A stretch of 64,000 nucleotides of DNA from assembly GCF_013402815.2 (NCBI RefSeq), contig NZ_CP058601.1, forward strand, positions 3,968,001 to 4,032,000, read 5' to 3'. The notes below the pieces were generated by a model. The model had not been told where the DNA came from. It was given only the letters and a program-made list of their open reading frames with translations, and made no database searches. The position numbers and the translations under genes are program-made. Below, piece after piece: positions 45,550-52,542 of the stretch (its first letter is position 1; the number at the start of each line of letters is the position of its first letter). The DNA is from Natrinema halophilum. Lineage in GTDB: Archaea > Halobacteriota > Halobacteria > Halobacteriales > Natrialbaceae.

Positions 45550-48500
45550 TCAACCGTCCTGCATGCGATCGAGGGTCGACTCCACGGCCTCGATTTCGGC
45601 TTCGATCAACCCGTAGCGGTCGTAGACGAGTTCGTCGATTCGGCGGTCCGTTTTTTCGATTTCGGCCTCGAGTTCTTCGGCCCGCTCTTTCGCTTCGAAG
45701 TAGCGGTCCAGACCATTACGAACGTCGTCGACAGCGGGCAACGTGAGTTTCCGAAGGCGATCGATGAGCGAATTCGTTTTGGTAGCCGTCTTTCGAACGT
45801 TCGCGAAGCCACCCGCTTCGTCGACCGCGACGGGGACGAATGCTTCGATCAGGTCCGCCTCGCGCGGCCCGAGACGGGTGATGCGGACCGCGGGTAGCAA
45901 ATCGGTCTCGGTGTAGCCCCACTGGTCGGTCTCGGTCGCAGGTTCGTCCGCAACCGCATCTCCGGTTCCAACTGGAGGCTTGTATCGAGCGGTCGCTTCT
46001 AGTAGGACCGTCCCAGCAGAGCGACGACTCACGGACGCGCGACCGAGGCGGAGTTGCGGCAGTTCACGTGTGGTCTTCTGGAGGGGCGAGTCTGGTGACG
46101 CCACCGGTTGTCTCGACCCAACGCTTGAGAGGGGCTTGCCCGGCCGATACTCGCCCAGTTGCGATCGCAGGTCGAGCGGGAGCGACTCCAGCCTTCGGGT
46201 CGCCTCGATCCGCCGGTTGACGAGGTCCTCGAATTCGGGATCCGTCGGAACGGCAACCGGATAGGATTCGAACGTGGACTGATTGATCTGGGGAAAAACC
46301 GATCGATAGGCGGCATATTTCATTTCGTGGTAGTACTCGAACAGGGACGAATTGAGGACACCGAGAACGCGAACGATATCAGTCTCGGATTCGCTCGCCG
46401 TAACGTTGTACACCGACTTGATAGTTGCACGAGACTCGGTGTCGAGGGCGCCCGTCGGCGTCGCCGCAGTCTGGCGAAAAACGAGCTTTGGACTCGTATA
46501 CTGATCGCGGTCCTTTTCTATCTCGTCGGGCGGAATGTACCGCGTTTCCGCGTCGTCGAACCCGTATGGCTTGATCGCTGAGCCCGGAATAATCGCCTTC
46601 GACTCGGCCTGCGATTTCGTTTCGGACAGAACTGCTGCACGCTTCCCGATCTCTTCGCCCCTCGAGATGGAAACCCGATCCCCGAGCCGTCGGTGGGCGT
46701 CCATCGTCTCCAGAATCGATCGAGTGGTTCGATCCAGGTGAAGCAAGAACCGGTGCTCGTCTTGTTCCCGAAAGACCGACTGCGGAATCTCGTCGTATTC
46801 GGCCGACGACACTGCCGTTGCTCCGTCGGCGAATGCACAGTTGATCGAATCGTCGCTCGATCCGGTTACGAGAACCGCGGCTCCGTTCTCGACGGTGTCG
46901 AACGCCGTTCCGAGGTGGAGAATGTACGCGATGGCCGTGTTGTCTAGCAGATATCGACGAATGTGAACGTTTTGCTCCCGTGTGAGTATTGCGTCGGGAA
47001 CGACGATACCGGTTCGGCCGTCCGCAGCGAGGCGGACGAACTGTTCGTAGAACGCGACGTACAGATCGAACTGCTGGCGCGTGGTCGCGTACTCGTCTTC
47101 GAGATACGCTCGAAGCGATCGGTCCATCGTCGCGCTGATAGCGCCTCGGCCCGCAGTCGCGACCCACGGCGGGTTCCCGATTACTGCATCGAATCCCGCT
47201 CTCTCTTGTGCCCGACCGTTCTCGGTCAGGAATACGTCGGGAAACTCGAGTTCCCAGTGGAAAAACGTCTTCTCGTCGCTCACGGTTTGCGCCCGCCGGA
47301 ACCACTCCGCGGTCCGGAGCTCCGCCCACGTCCCGTCGTCGATCGCTTGCTCGAGTCGTGTGTGGACACCGTCGGGTATTTCGTGGTCGAACTGTGCCGC
47401 GGTGTGAACGTCCGCCAGTTCGAACAGACGCCGGAAAGGGGACTCCGAACGGCATATCTCGTCGCACGCAGCCGTCGACGCGATGGATGCGAGCGTCTCG
47501 GCCGAGAGCACCTCCGTCACGTCCGACCCGACCAGCGAGTTACCCGTCCTGAGATTGTGATCCCGAAATGGGGTCGGCTGGTCGGCCGCGGTCGCCTCGA
47601 GCCACACCGATAGTTTCGCCAGTTCGACGGCCATCTCGTTTCGGTCCACCCCGTAGATGCATTCGGAGACGATTGCTCTCCGAATCCGCCGTTCGTCGAC
47701 GGCAGTCGTTCCCTCGAGTGTGCGGTGCTCGGACACGACCCGGGATGCGAGGTACGCCGTCGCACGCGTGAGGAAGTGGCCGGTCCCCATCGCCGGATCG
47801 AGAATCGTCAGGTCGGTCACCCGGTGATAGAACGCGTCGAGGTACTCCTCGGTTGTCGGTCGAAGTCCCTGTGACGTAAGCTCGTCTTCGATCTCGTTGA
47901 CCAGCGGTCCGACGGTCTTTTCGACGACGTAGTTTACCACCTCGTCCGGCGTGTAGTAGGTCCCCGATGTCTTTCGCTCGCCGTCATCGGTGACGACGTA
48001 CAGCTCACCTTTGTCGACGGTCTCGATCGCATCCGACTCCGGTACATCGATTGCCGGCTTCCAGACCGGCCCGTCGTCCCCTGGAACTGCTGCGTATTTG
48101 GTTGGCGCGATCCGAAACTGCCGTTCGAGCAACGCTTCGTAACCGTTTCCGAGGTGGCGTGTGTCGAGGTCGGCGTAATCGATCGGAACGTGACGCCCTT
48201 TTCCAGTCTCAGTCGTCGAGAGTCGATAGATCGCTTCCGCGAGGTACCGATCGCAGATCGCGCTGGTGGGTAAACATTCGTGCTCCGATCGGTCGAATAA
48301 CCCACTGTCGGTCGACGGCACGGACAGCGCTTCCCCACCCTCGTAGATCGCCTGGAAGAGTCCGTCGAGTCGCTGCCACAACGTCGTCGACCGCTCGTCG
48401 TAGTGCTCGGCAAACCCGTCACCACCCGCGCCGATCTCGTCGTAAATTTCGAATCGAAGTACATCGAGACTGACGGGCGGTTCGTTTGTCTCGTCTCCGT

Positions 48501-49461
48501 CGGAATATGCGGCACCGACGAGTCCTCGGGACTCGGCATACATGACGACCAACAATCGGTAGAGCAAGACGAGCGACTGCGATTTGAGCTCTTCGAGCCG
48601 CTCGTCGTCGTCGGGATCGATTCCGGGGTCGCACCTCTCGTTGATGCCGCGACCGAGAAGCTCCAGTGCCGTGAAACAGCTCTCTTCGAGGTCCGTTCCG
48701 AGTTCCCTGGCGACCGCCCAGCTCTCCGCACGAATCGACTCGAGAACCGTCGTTCCCGACGACTCTCGGAACGCAGCTGCCCGGAAGAAGACGTAGAAGT
48801 ACTTGAACGCCTCGCCGTCGTCGCGCTCGAGCAGGTCCGGTAGATCGACCTCGTAGCGGGCCTGGGTCTCGTACTTGTTTATACCGCCGGTCTGCATTAT
48901 GACTTCGGTCGACCCGTAGAGTCGCCAGGTTCGCCCGTTCGTAAGAATACCCCATCGGACCGACTCCGGCGTGCGTTCGAGGGTGGACGCAATTCCGTTG
49001 GCGGCGACTCGATCGACCGGCCGGCCGTCGTTCTGTGCCGTGTCGATCGCGTCTCGCTGGCACGTTTGCACGATGGCGATAGCATTCTCGAGCGGTGGCG
49101 GTCCCTCGGAGTCGATTCGCTTTCCCGTGTCCGATGATGAGTCGCTATCCCATAGGCCGGTATCGGTATCGTCGTCTAGAAGGAAATCGACGGCGTCGTC
49201 CCCATTTGAAACCGTTGTCTCGACTGTCGTCTCGAACCCGAGCACGTCTAGAATCTCAGGGACCACGTTTTCGACCGCACACTCATCGTCGGGGGCCGAT
49301 TTTGATTCGCTGTCGAACAGCACTTGCAGCCGTTCCATAGCCTCGGTCGCTGCCTCATCGCAGTCCCACGCCGATCGGCCCTGGATCCGTTCGTCGAGAT
49401 AGTAGCGGGCAAAGAGCGACGAGTGTGTGTACGGCCGGTCAGGCTGCGCTCCCTCCCTCAT
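45550..49461 (-). CDS. Type IIG restriction-modification-like protein (Eco57I-type methyltransferase)
   Basis: 1303 residues from the ATG at 49461, which gives the usual RPYTHSSLFARYYLDERI opening; an ATG at 49551 would add 30 residues. The adenine methyltransferase core has motif I DPAMGTGHFL (D555) and motif IV NPPW (763-766), and further helper features (YGVDRNEMAVELAKL; NLRTGNSLVG). A specificity region lies in the C-terminal third (PQINQSTFESYPVAVP), with a coiled coil at the end. In type IIG enzymes the N-terminal nuclease has PD and ExK residues near residue 100-135. Here the second reads VQTC (131-134), so cleavage is probably lost. No other defence gene is next to it. Confidence 0.82.
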   Translation of the reverse strand: MREGAQPDRPYTHSSLFARYYLDERIQGRSAWDCDEAATEAMERLQVLFDSESKSAPDDECAVENVVPEILDVLGFETTVETTVSNGDDAVDFLLDDDTDTGLWDSDSSSDTGKRIDSEGPPPLENAIAIVQTCQRDAIDTAQNDGRPVDRVAANGIASTLERTPESVRWGILTNGRTWRLYGSTEVIMQTGGINKYETQARYEVDLPDLLERDDGEAFKYFYVFFRAAAFRESSGTTVLESIRAESWAVARELGTDLEESCFTALELLGRGINERCDPGIDPDDDERLEELKSQSLVLLYRLLVVMYAESRGLVGAAYSDGDETNEPPVSLDVLRFEIYDEIGAGGDGFAEHYDERSTTLWQRLDGLFQAIYEGGEALSVPSTDSGLFDRSEHECLPTSAICDRYLAEAIYRLSTTETGKGRHVPIDYADLDTRHLGNGYEALLERQFRIAPTKYAAVPGDDGPVWKPAIDVPESDAIETVDKGELYVVTDDGERKTSGTYYTPDEVVNYVVEKTVGPLVNEIEDELTSQGLRPTTEEYLDAFYHRVTDLTILDPAMGTGHFLTRATAYLASRVVSEHRTLEGTTAVDERRIRRAIVSECIYGVDRNEMAVELAKLSVWLEATAADQPTPFRDHNLRTGNSLVGSDVTEVLSAETLASIASTAACDEICRSESPFRRLFELADVHTAAQFDHEIPDGVHTRLEQAIDDGTWAELRTAEWFRRAQTVSDEKTFFHWELEFPDVFLTENGRAQERAGFDAVIGNPPWVATAGRGAISATMDRSLRAYLEDEYATTRQQFDLYVAFYEQFVRLAADGRTGIVVPDAILTREQNVHIRRYLLDNTAIAYILHLGTAFDTVENGAAVLVTGSSDDSINCAFADGATAVSSAEYDEIPQSVFREQDEHRFLLHLDRTTRSILETMDAHRRLGDRVSISRGEEIGKRAAVLSETKSQAESKAIIPGSAIKPYGFDDAETRYIPPDEIEKDRDQYTSPKLVFRQTAATPTGALDTESRATIKSVYNVTASESETDIVRVLGVLNSSLFEYYHEMKYAAYRSVFPQINQSTFESYPVAVPTDPEFEDLVNRRIEATRRLESLPLDLRSQLGEYRPGKPLSSVGSRQPVASPDSPLQKTTRELPQLRLGRASVSRRSAGTVLLEATARYKPPVGTGDAVADEPATETDQWGYTETDLLPAVRITRLGPREADLIEAFVPVAVDEAGGFANVRKTATKTNSLIDRLRKLTLPAVDDVRNGLDRYFEAKERAEELEAEIEKTDRRIDELVYDRYGLIEAEIEAVESTLDRMQDG

Positions 49462-49581
49462 GGTACCCGTTGTCTCGAATCGTCGCCGTAAGAAACCACT
49501 GGTCGACTGGATCACGTCCAGTGATTCCGTCCCAGTCAGCACCCTTTTCATGATCGGTCTCTCAGTCGATAGCGAGAGAAC

Positions 49582-50966: not shown

Positions 50967-51326
50967 ATGAACGCACTGGCCGATCCACCCACGGAAGGGT
51001 GGTTCGCCGAGGAATTGGCTGAAACGTTCGACTCGTGGTACGCTCACCGCGAGAACGGCAACGAGGACGCGAACCCTCCCGGCTACCGCAAGCGCGGCGA
51101 CGACAGCCAGCGCGTTGAGCGTGGGTTGTACGTGTGTGACGAGTGTGGACTGGTCGCCAACGCCGACGTGAACGGTGCCCAGAACATCCGACAAAAGGTA
51201 CTCCCGAGTCTCGCCTGTGACGGGGGAGATAGGGATAACGGCTGGATGGCACAGCCAGCGGTGCATCTGTTCGAGAAATCCACGGGACACGTAGTCCCAC
51301 AAGAACAGGGAACCCGCAAACCATAA
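50967..51326 (+). pseudogene. Internally deleted TnpB relic
   Basis: 119 residues remain of a protein normally 400-430 long. Residues 1-46 resemble the early part of haloarchaeal TnpB (WFAEELAETFDSWYAHR), though even the true start is missing. Then the sequence jumps to the C-terminal zinc ribbon: YVCDECGLVANADVNGAQNI, followed by the usual tail with GHVVPQEQGTRKP. The RuvC catalytic residues are gone, so it cannot cut DNA. The frame is open, which suggests a clean deletion. A right-end hairpin of the element follows at 51346. Confidence 0.85.
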
Positions 51327-51345
51327 TATCCCACCGCTTGGGAAA

Positions 51346-51365
51346 CCGCGGCGTTCACGCCGCGG
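51346..51365 (+). mobile_element. Right-end hairpin of the TnpB element
   Basis: CCGCGGCG-TTCA-CGCCGCGG forms a perfect 8-base stem with a 4-base loop, 20 bases after the relic's stop. IS605-family elements end in such subterminal hairpins, and the 3' end of tnpB plus right end makes the guide (omega) RNA. The element border is close to 51371, next to the stop codon of the HD-domain gene. Confidence 0.75.
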
Positions 51366-51371
51366 AGGATG

Positions 51372-52046
51372 TCATTCGCCAAGTGCGGCAATCTCGTCTT
51401 CGAGCCATTCGCTGAACCACTTGACTCGCTTCAGCCGCTGGTGGGCGATGCTCTCGGCGGTATCGCTCTGTACGCGTGAAGCGGCATCGTAGCCCCGTTC
51501 GAGGACTCGACTGACCATATCGTCGGCGTCCATGTGGGTGCGGGCTTCGTACCCCATCCGAAGCAACATCAGGGCGGTTCCGTTGGCTCCGATTTTGTCG
51601 AGCAAGTCCGCTTCGATGAGACACTGTGTCTCGAGAGCGAGGTCGGTCAGGTCGCTCTGGTAGGAATGGTGTTCGACGGCGCGACTCACCTGCTTGATGA
51701 ACGATTCGGGGTACTCTCCGTGGGATTCGAGGTATTCGCGAGCCACGCGAGCGCCGGCCTCGGCGTGAAGTTCCTGATCGGTCTCGAGTTTGGCAACGTC
51801 GTGAAAGAGTGCGGCGACGCGTGTCACGTCGGTATCTGCACCTTCTTTCTCGGCGATCTCCGTCGCGAGACTGACCACGTTGAGAATGTGGTTGTGCCGG
51901 TACTCGGCGGAGTGCCAGGGGTACCAGCGCATGCGCCCTCCCTCGTCTTCTTTCTCGACGCTGGCCGCGAGGTACTCGAAGACGAAGCCTTTCATCGCCT
52001 CGAATTCGGCATCGGTCAAACCGGTTTCTTTTATTTCAACGCCCAC
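51372..52046 (-). CDS. HD-domain metal-dependent phosphohydrolase
   Basis: 224 residues from a GTG at 52046, chosen because GGAGGG (52054-52059 on the other strand) sits at good distance and the upstream frame looks non-coding. Metal ligands are H53 in RHNHILNV, and the H82-D83 pair in ALFHDVAKLE; a later His-rich VEHHSYQ completes the set. HD proteins hydrolyse nucleotides or cyclic nucleotides. Its stop codon touches the end of the TnpB element, so the last residues may have been altered by insertion. Confidence 0.85.
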   Translation of the reverse strand: MGVEIKETGLTDAEFEAMKGFVFEYLAASVEKEDEGGRMRWYPWHSAEYRHNHILNVVSLATEIAEKEGADTDVTRVAALFHDVAKLETDQELHAEAGARVAREYLESHGEYPESFIKQVSRAVEHHSYQSDLTDLALETQCLIEADLLDKIGANGTALMLLRMGYEARTHMDADDMVSRVLERGYDAASRVQSDTAESIAHQRLKRVKWFSEWLEDEIAALGE

Positions 52047-52200
52047 GATAGATCCCTCCGCAGCAGACGAACGATAGTCATTACTGGAATGTTCGGTCGT
52101 TTCATTCTTTAGCCTTTGGTTCGATACGACTTTGCTGAGAGGGATCCCACAGAGACAGCCATATTCTGCTGTGTGCCAGCCCGGACGTACACTTTCGGCG

Positions 52201-52542
52201 TTACCGAAGTCCACGGACGAGCGAACCGAGCAGTGCCCCACCCGGTGGAATCACGACACTGACGACGACCACCTGACCCATCTCGAGATACGTACCGAGG
52301 ACGCCGGCCGACGCGAGCCACACCGCAAAGGTGACGACGGATAGCAAGCCGAACGCGAGACCGGCGAGGAGGCCGCGTCGAATCGACGGTTGGACGAGGG
52401 ACACGATGGCTCCACCGGCGACGAATCCCACCCAGTGGACCCACGCGAACGCGAGACCAGCGACGATCCCACCGGCTATCGACAGCCGACGGCGGCGGTC
52501 GTCAGCCCGAGTCTCGTCGAGCCACGTGCCGATCGAACTCAT
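52201..52542 (-). CDS. Small membrane protein coupled to the acylase gene
   Basis: 113 residues with three hydrophobic helices (about 20-50, 55-80, 85-105). The ATG at 52542 overlaps the stop of the acylase-family gene by four bases (52539-52542), so the two are co-translated. I recognise no family with certainty; haloarchaeal DUF5518-type proteins are similar in size and style. Perhaps an accessory or anchor of the acylase. Confidence 0.65.
   Translation of the reverse strand: MSSIGTWLDETRADDRRRRLSIAGGIVAGLAFAWVHWVGFVAGGAIVSLVQPSIRRGLLAGLAFGLLSVVTFAVWLASAGVLGTYLEMGQVVVVSVVIPPGGALLGSLVRGLR

What the first reader, a model, noticed from the sequence alone, without database searches (positions are those of the whole stretch)
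50967..51371. TnpB relic reduced to its zinc ribbon, with an intact right-end hairpin
The nuclease core is cleanly removed while the 3' end of the gene and the perfect hairpin are kept. In IS605-type elements this same 3' region makes the guide (omega) RNA, whose guide reads into the flanking DNA. The relic could thus still produce a non-coding RNA, usable by an intact TnpB elsewhere, with a guide drawn from the HD-domain gene's 3' end, or serve as a MITE-like unit.
Basis: partly seen in the sequence, partly recalled or inferred. Interest (0 to 1): 0.55.

Follow-up and report, generated by a model that had tools for sequence, protein, structure and literature searches.

The report
Dead TnpB remnant keeping guide RNA
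A jumping gene that once carried an RNA-guided DNA cutter has lost the cutter but kept the sequence of its guide RNA, and its end now serves as the stop signal of the neighbouring gene; such remnants are a known kind, but the habit of landing exactly on stop codons looks general in salt-loving archaea and is worth a test.

Summary
Window 51008-51375 (a Natrinema genome) is a twice-deleted IS1341/IS605-type TnpB element. It lost its left end and the first ~79 tnpB codons, and 699 bp (233 codons, in frame) of the nuclease core. Only half of the zinc ribbon remains, and the ORF's ATG lies in host flank. The omega-RNA sequence (Rfam sot0042, 109.6 bits; cut-off 88) and the right-end hairpin are intact. 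The element is absent at this site in all 28 other genomes of the genus searched.

The right end lies antisense on the HD gene's stop codon and supplies a TGA there. An exact 53-bp copy does the same at the end of valS. In 110 right-end flanks of the genus, genes reading into the right end are in the stop-supplying frame in 17 of 20 cases; in 57 flanks from other genera, in 12 of 13.

No close TnpB exists in this genome (nearest intact ones ~56-60% identical), the only TnpA found holds a stop codon, and the left end is gone: the MITE idea fails and action in trans is unproven. Most likely an inert remnant with one passive job, the HD stop codon. Such remnants have been published since 2011; I found no report of the stop-codon exchange.

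The parts
   Evidence: 83-86% identical in five relatives that lack the element, printed side by side; DUF7332; right limit approximate
51008..51104 (+). tnpB fragment, codons 80 to about 112-114 of the intact relative
   Evidence: BLAST to L080 83.5% DNA identity; protein alignment, residues 80-114
51098..51104 (+). join of the in-frame 699-bp deletion, 6-7 bp overlap
   Evidence: overlap of the two BLAST pieces; L080 1440-1536 and 2229-2506
51098..51326 (+). last 75 codons of tnpB with stop codon; second half of the zinc ribbon only
   Evidence: 87% of 75 residues identical to L080; PF07282 27.1 bits
51196..51366 (+). omega RNA scaffold, Rfam RF02656 sot0042
   Evidence: 109.6 bits, gathering 88, model 1-174 of 174, E 4.9e-29; fold z -6.06
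51346..51365 (+). terminal right-end hairpin, 8 bp stem, loop TTCA
   Evidence: sequence; identical copy at G000:C1:2134603-2134637
51365..51375 (+). right-end terminus GAGGATGTCAT
   Evidence: eight of the nine best plasmid hits stop at 51375, one at 51378; GTCAT in the intact relatives
51372..51374 (-). TGA stop codon of the HD gene, supplied by the right end
   Evidence: in 25 of 28 relatives the HD stop codon lies exactly here
51376..51395 (+). putative guide region (20 nt), antisense to the last HD codons
   Evidence: position after the right end; first 18 nt match the genome perfectly only here; guide length recalled, not tested
51372..52241 (-). HD-domain gene (ORF as listed, start uncertain)
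   Evidence: PF01966 58.5 bits; match to this part of the query in all 28 other genomes of the genus

Best explanation
This is a dead, twice-deleted derivative of a haloarchaeal IS1341/IS605-type TnpB element of the sot0042 omega-RNA group. Shown by sequence: an element sits antisense at the stop codon of an HD-domain gene, in this genome only among 29 of the genus; one deletion fused host flank to tnpB codon ~80 and removed the left end; another, in-frame deletion of 699 bp at a 6-7 bp repeat removed the nuclease core; the omega-RNA region and right end stayed complete, and the right end's TCA is now the HD gene's TGA stop. Inferred: the order of the two deletions; that the ancestral stop was TAG or TAA; that the omega RNA may still be transcribed. 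Most likely it is now a neutral remnant. Its one visible role is passive: it ends the HD reading frame without changing the last residue. An omega RNA made from it would carry an HD 3'-end guide but has no close TnpB partner in this genome.
For: sot0042 match; fold; 47 of 49 pairs kept; the two tnpB pieces and the in-frame 699-bp gap against an intact relative; host left flank with the ATG; empty sites in 28 of 28 other genomes of the genus; HD stop exactly at the right end's TCA in 25 of 28; right-end limit from independent copies; single TnpA match with an in-frame TAG; 8 of 11 sot0042-like loci of this genome likewise lack an intact TnpB.
Against: The ORF is still open and the RNA structure well kept, which a long-neutral remnant would lose; the remnant may simply be young. 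In the last 75 codons against N. pallidum, 13 changed codons are synonymous and 10 nonsynonymous, which does not separate protein or RNA constraint from drift. Only one genome of the species is held, so polymorphism and age are unknown.
Confidence: 0.85

Rival explanations
1. Solo omega RNA used in trans: a related intact TnpB of the same genome loads this RNA and cuts HD-gene alleles that lack the insert, keeping the remnant in the population.
For: Intact scaffold above the Rfam cut-off, pairs kept, three own-genome loci of this omega-RNA type with an uninterrupted TnpB, guide with a perfect match only at this site.
Against: Those TnpBs are only about 56-60% identical to the intact relative and their scaffolds 70-75% identical to the relic's; the guide differs from all 28 sister-species sites at 2-7 of 20 positions, at least once in the first 12; no sign of conservation across species.
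Confidence: 0.07
2. MITE/PATE-like mobile unit moved by a TnpA in trans.
For: Right end intact and an exact 53-bp sister copy at valS; terminal-only forms moved in Haloquadratum are suggested in PMC3119063 (section 30).
Against: Left end absent; the only TnpA found has an in-frame TAG; the valS piece is a lone right end without left end.
Confidence: 0.02
3. Antisense regulator: an RNA from the relic overlaps the 3' end of the HD mRNA and affects its stability or termination.
For: The omega-RNA strand is antisense to the HD mRNA and the guide overlaps its last codons. Sense-overlapping RNAs of this family are expressed in Halobacterium (PMC12558985, passages read).
Against: No expression data; the overlap is a by-product of where these elements land.
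Confidence: 0.05

Closest known systems
RF02656 sot0042 (omega RNA of haloarchaeal IS200/IS605 TnpB)
   Same: Full-length match above the gathering score, same position at the tnpB 3' end and right end
   Different: tnpB around it is dead; transcription not shown
Core-deleted IS605-type elements and PATEs of Haloquadratum, e.g. the 52-bp form of ISHwa23 and the non-coding C-terminal remnant HqIRS71 (PMC3119063, sections 28 and 30 read)
   Same: Repeat-mediated internal deletion; C-terminal coding part and right end kept; TnpB-less
   Different: Here the left end is lost, so no pair of palindromic ends; described there without reference to omega RNAs in the sections read
PATE-like remnant of Halanaerobium hydrogeniformans (PMC7290912, passages)
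   Same: Keeps the last 58 nt of tnpB and the whole right end
   Different: That one keeps 28 nt of the left end with its hairpin; bacterial host
Intact sister elements, e.g. L080/L298 N. pallidum and L291 Salinibaculum litoreum
   Same: Same subfamily: right end GTCAT, sot0042 omega RNA (L282), 84-90% DNA identity
   Different: Full-length TnpB and, in ten copies printed, a CTATCT left end

Membership tests
Intact IS1341/IS605-type TnpB element | TnpB with RuvC core and full zinc ribbon | tested here: not met
   233 codons of the core and the first CxxC missing, ~79 N-terminal codons missing
Intact IS1341/IS605-type TnpB element | left end with target motif (CTATCT in the sister copies) | tested here: not met
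   host flank runs to about 50987 and is followed by tnpB codon ~80
Intact IS1341/IS605-type TnpB element | right end with terminal hairpin | tested here: met
   51346-51375
RF02656 sot0042 omega RNA | covariance-model score at or above the gathering score over the full model | tested here: met
   109.6 against 88 bits, 1-174 of 174
RF02656 sot0042 omega RNA | expressed, processed RNA bound by TnpB | not testable with these tools
   no RNA data held
PATE / MITE | both element ends with near-terminal palindromes | tested here: not met
   left end absent
PATE / MITE | an active transposase to act in trans | tested here: inconclusive
   one Y1 TnpA match in the genome, with one in-frame TAG; a diverged TnpA could be missed
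C-terminal deletion remnant of an IS605-type element (as in PMC3119063) | internal deletion at short direct repeats with the tnpB 3' part and right end kept | tested here: met
   6-7 bp overlap at the join, 699 bp gap; the parent copy itself is not held

The most novel reading that the evidence does not exclude
Haloarchaeal IS605/IS1341-type elements have ends built for landing on stop codons. The target motif ([CT]TA[CT], read antisense) contains the complement of TAA/TAG, and the right end terminates in TCA, the complement of TGA. An antisense insertion therefore exchanges one stop for another and spares the gene. It also gives the omega RNA a guide from the 3' end of a gene, often a conserved one. 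Remnants such as this one can then persist as cost-free solo guide-RNA genes, each holding a guide against the empty allele of a gene.
Probability: 0.35. Interest if true: 0.6.

Novelty: new member of a known kind. Interest (0 to 1): 0.36.

Why it matters
The relic itself adds one well-described example of how TnpB elements decay: nuclease lost, guide-RNA end kept. The wider pattern seen from it matters more. Such elements repeatedly sit antisense on the stop codons of genes such as valS, 3-dehydroquinate synthase II, elp3 and methenyl-H4MPT cyclohydrolase without visible damage. If confirmed, this explains how they persist in dense genomes and why their guides would point at conserved gene ends. 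It can be tested directly in laboratory haloarchaea.

Tried and rejected
Zinc-ribbon-only protein as a functional product: rejected. The start codon is in host flank and half the ribbon is gone. In the last 75 codons, 10 of 23 changed codons against N. pallidum are nonsynonymous, which is uninformative because the omega RNA overlaps.

MITE/PATE unit: rejected (no left end).

Second genomic target for the guide: none beyond chance.

Viral carriers: the scan of viral contigs with the last 75 codons gave 7 pattern matches but no relative.

Count of solo omega RNAs of this type in the genus: of 42 right-end loci with no or only partial TnpB, 1 reached the Rfam cut-off for sot0042 (L215). Lone sot0042-type RNAs at full score are therefore not common there. 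In this genome 8 of 11 sot0042-like loci lack an intact TnpB, but only 2 of the 11 pass the Rfam cut-off.

Sense-strand genes at the right flank showed a weaker frame bias (3, 3 and 8 by frame), not followed up.

In one search the reverse-strand rows were wrongly placed; one search repeats that test correctly.

Full report
What was claimed.

What is there. The window is G000:C1:3968001-4032000 of a 4.84-Mb genome. Relatives in the same genus carry Natrinema names (N. pallidum, N. thermotolerans; the contigs and positions agree). The ORF 50967-51326 (119 aa) matches PF07282 weakly but above its cut-off (27.1 against 26.3 bits, residues 50-74). The gene facing it (51372-52241, minus) is an HD-domain protein (58.5 bits).

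The RNA part is intact. Rfam sot0042 (RF02656), the haloarchaeal sense-overlapping transcript now read as a TnpB omega RNA (PMC12558985, passages seen), matches 51196-51366 over its whole length with 109.6 bits against a cut-off of 88, E 4.9e-29. The stretch 51180-51371 folds at -81.3 kcal/mol against a shuffled mean of -58.2, z -6.06, 0 of 200 shuffles as good. In an alignment of six relatives, with the consensus structure predicted from that same alignment, the relic keeps 47 of 49 pairs. The N. pallidum copy with intact TnpB keeps 48, two other Natrinema copies 49 and 49, and two more distant copies 36 and 42. Against its three near relatives the relic shows 2-3 pairs changed on both sides and still paired. 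Because the valS copy has the same hairpin, those in the hairpin may be older than the deletion.

The protein part is dead, and not as described. The intact copy used for the join is L080 (N. pallidum, 417 aa from a GTG). The relic's 51008-51104 matches its codons 80-114, and 51098-51326 its last 75 codons (65 of 75 residues). Between them 699 bp, 233 codons, are missing in frame, with a 6-7 bp overlap at the join (GACGAC), as expected of a deletion between short repeats. The deletion takes the RuvC core and the first CxxC of the ribbon. Upstream, 50937 to about 50987 is host DNA: 83-86% identical in five relatives without the element, printed side by side, including the ATG that opens the 'ORF'. 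The left end and ~79 codons are therefore lost too, and the ORF is an accidental fusion.

Ends and insertion site. The nine best haloarchaeal plasmid records hold the same two pieces at 84.8-89.6% identity; eight stop at exactly window 51375, one at 51378. Ten copies, eight or more of them from other genera, begin with CTATCT directly after unrelated flanks. The element is thus [CTAT]...GTCAT; whether CTAT belongs to the target or the element was not separated by an empty site of this subfamily. At the HD gene, none of 28 other genomes of the genus has the element. In 25 of 28 the HD stop codon (TTA 12, CTA 8, TCA 5 on this strand, each followed by C) lies exactly where the right end's TCA lies; in three (TTAG) it does not, and they seem to stop about one codon earlier. 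The insertion exchanged the stop codon and left the last residue (Glu) as in most relatives.

A sister copy. The last 50 bases of the relic plus three of flank (51326-51378) recur without mismatch at G000:C1:2134599-2134651, at the end of valyl-tRNA synthetase (name from the translation, recalled). The piece there is a lone right end. In 27 of 28 relatives this gene ends with TAA or TAG exactly where this genome has the right end's TGA (the 28th row was out of register).

Is that a pattern? A pattern for the right end found 144 sites in 26 of 29 genomes of the genus (0 with the pattern reversed). I fetched 113 of the 144, leaving out mainly draft genomes and a few hits without a clear hairpin; three were lost to a one-base slip, so 110 were analysed. 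Among these, a coding-like ORF (at least 80 aa, third-position GC at least 0.25 above second, acidic) running antisense into the right end was found 20 times. In 17 it ends on the right end's own TGA, in 1 and 2 in the other frames (binomial against one third, 2.8e-6; other thresholds 17-22 against 1 and 2). HD and valS are not among the 110. In other genera, 57 distinct flanks (of 80 loci; 4 Natrinema loci and 19 without a usable end or duplicate left out) gave 12, 0 and 1 (1.7e-5). Ten of the 17 frame-0 proteins of the genus were scanned. Three reach the last position of a full-length model within one residue of their own end: 3-dehydroquinate synthase II 391/391, Elp3 522/522, methenyl-H4MPT cyclohydrolase 313/313. 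The others match to near the end or have no model covering the C-terminus. The three look like natural ends, not truncations. The simplest reading is that insertions inside genes are lost and those on the stop codon are harmless because the right end supplies TGA. Whether the ends were selected for this is open.

Could the RNA act in trans? This genome has 11 sot0042-like loci, two above the Rfam cut-off. Three have an uninterrupted TnpB over nearly the full length at about 56-60% identity to L080; eight are broken, partial or reduced to the 3' end. The scaffolds compared are 70-75% identical to the relic's (six of the other ten loci). The guide's first 18 bases match the genome perfectly only at this site; the other eight hits all have 3 mismatches, against 7 control hits. 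In the 28 sister genomes the site differs at 2-7 of 20 positions, at least once in the first 12. The only allele such a guide would fit is an empty HD allele of this species. Nothing excludes this; nothing shows it.

Could it move? The left end is missing and the one TnpA found in the genome contains an in-frame TAG. The MITE idea is not supported.

What is known. Repeat-mediated core deletions of IS605-type elements, C-terminal remnants and 52-bp terminal-only forms were described in Haloquadratum in 2011 (PMC3119063; sections 27, 28 and 30 read; passages). A remnant with 58 nt of tnpB and the full right end was described in Halanaerobium (PMC7290912, passages). So this is a new member of a known kind. 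For the stop-codon exchange, my searches (IS605 or TnpB with stop or termination codon, insertion site, target motif) listed no paper whose title or abstract start describes it. I read passages of three of the listed papers (PMC3119063, PMC7290912, PMC11043419), and the library lacks most subscription papers.

Limits. One genome per species; no RNA data; coding calls rest on composition; the TnpB status of the 110 loci (56 intact, 12 full-length but broken, 15 partial, 27 none) used 17 query proteins and may miss diverged ones.

Noticed in passing
G000:C1:2134599-2134651 (L003 1501-1553): An exact 53-bp copy of the relic's right end lies antisense on the stop codon of valS and supplies its TGA; 27 of 28 relatives have TAA/TAG there.
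   Followed up: yes
right ends in Natrinema (L170-L279) and in other genera (L291-L370): Genes reading antisense into these right ends are nearly always in the frame in which the right end's TCA gives the stop: 17 of 20 and 12 of 13.
   Followed up: partly
G000:C1:3443176-3443484 (L290): The only Y1 (TnpA) transposase match of the genome has an in-frame TAG and lies just before an intact tnpB.
   Followed up: partly
L215/L083 (N. pellirubrum, G014:C3 near 271000): A second member of the same subfamily with only the C-terminal part of tnpB and a full sot0042 match, 109.1 bits.
   Followed up: partly
right-end loci by subfamily: The base after GTCA follows the element's subfamily (C, A or T), as if it were part of the end and matched to the target motif.
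   Followed up: no
right flanks, sense strand: Sense-strand coding ORFs starting at the right end were also uneven by frame (3, 3 and 8).
   Followed up: no
window 45550-49551 (-): A 1333-aa ORF with a NPPW motif (recalled as typical of DNA adenine methylases), possibly a fused restriction-modification enzyme.
   Followed up: no
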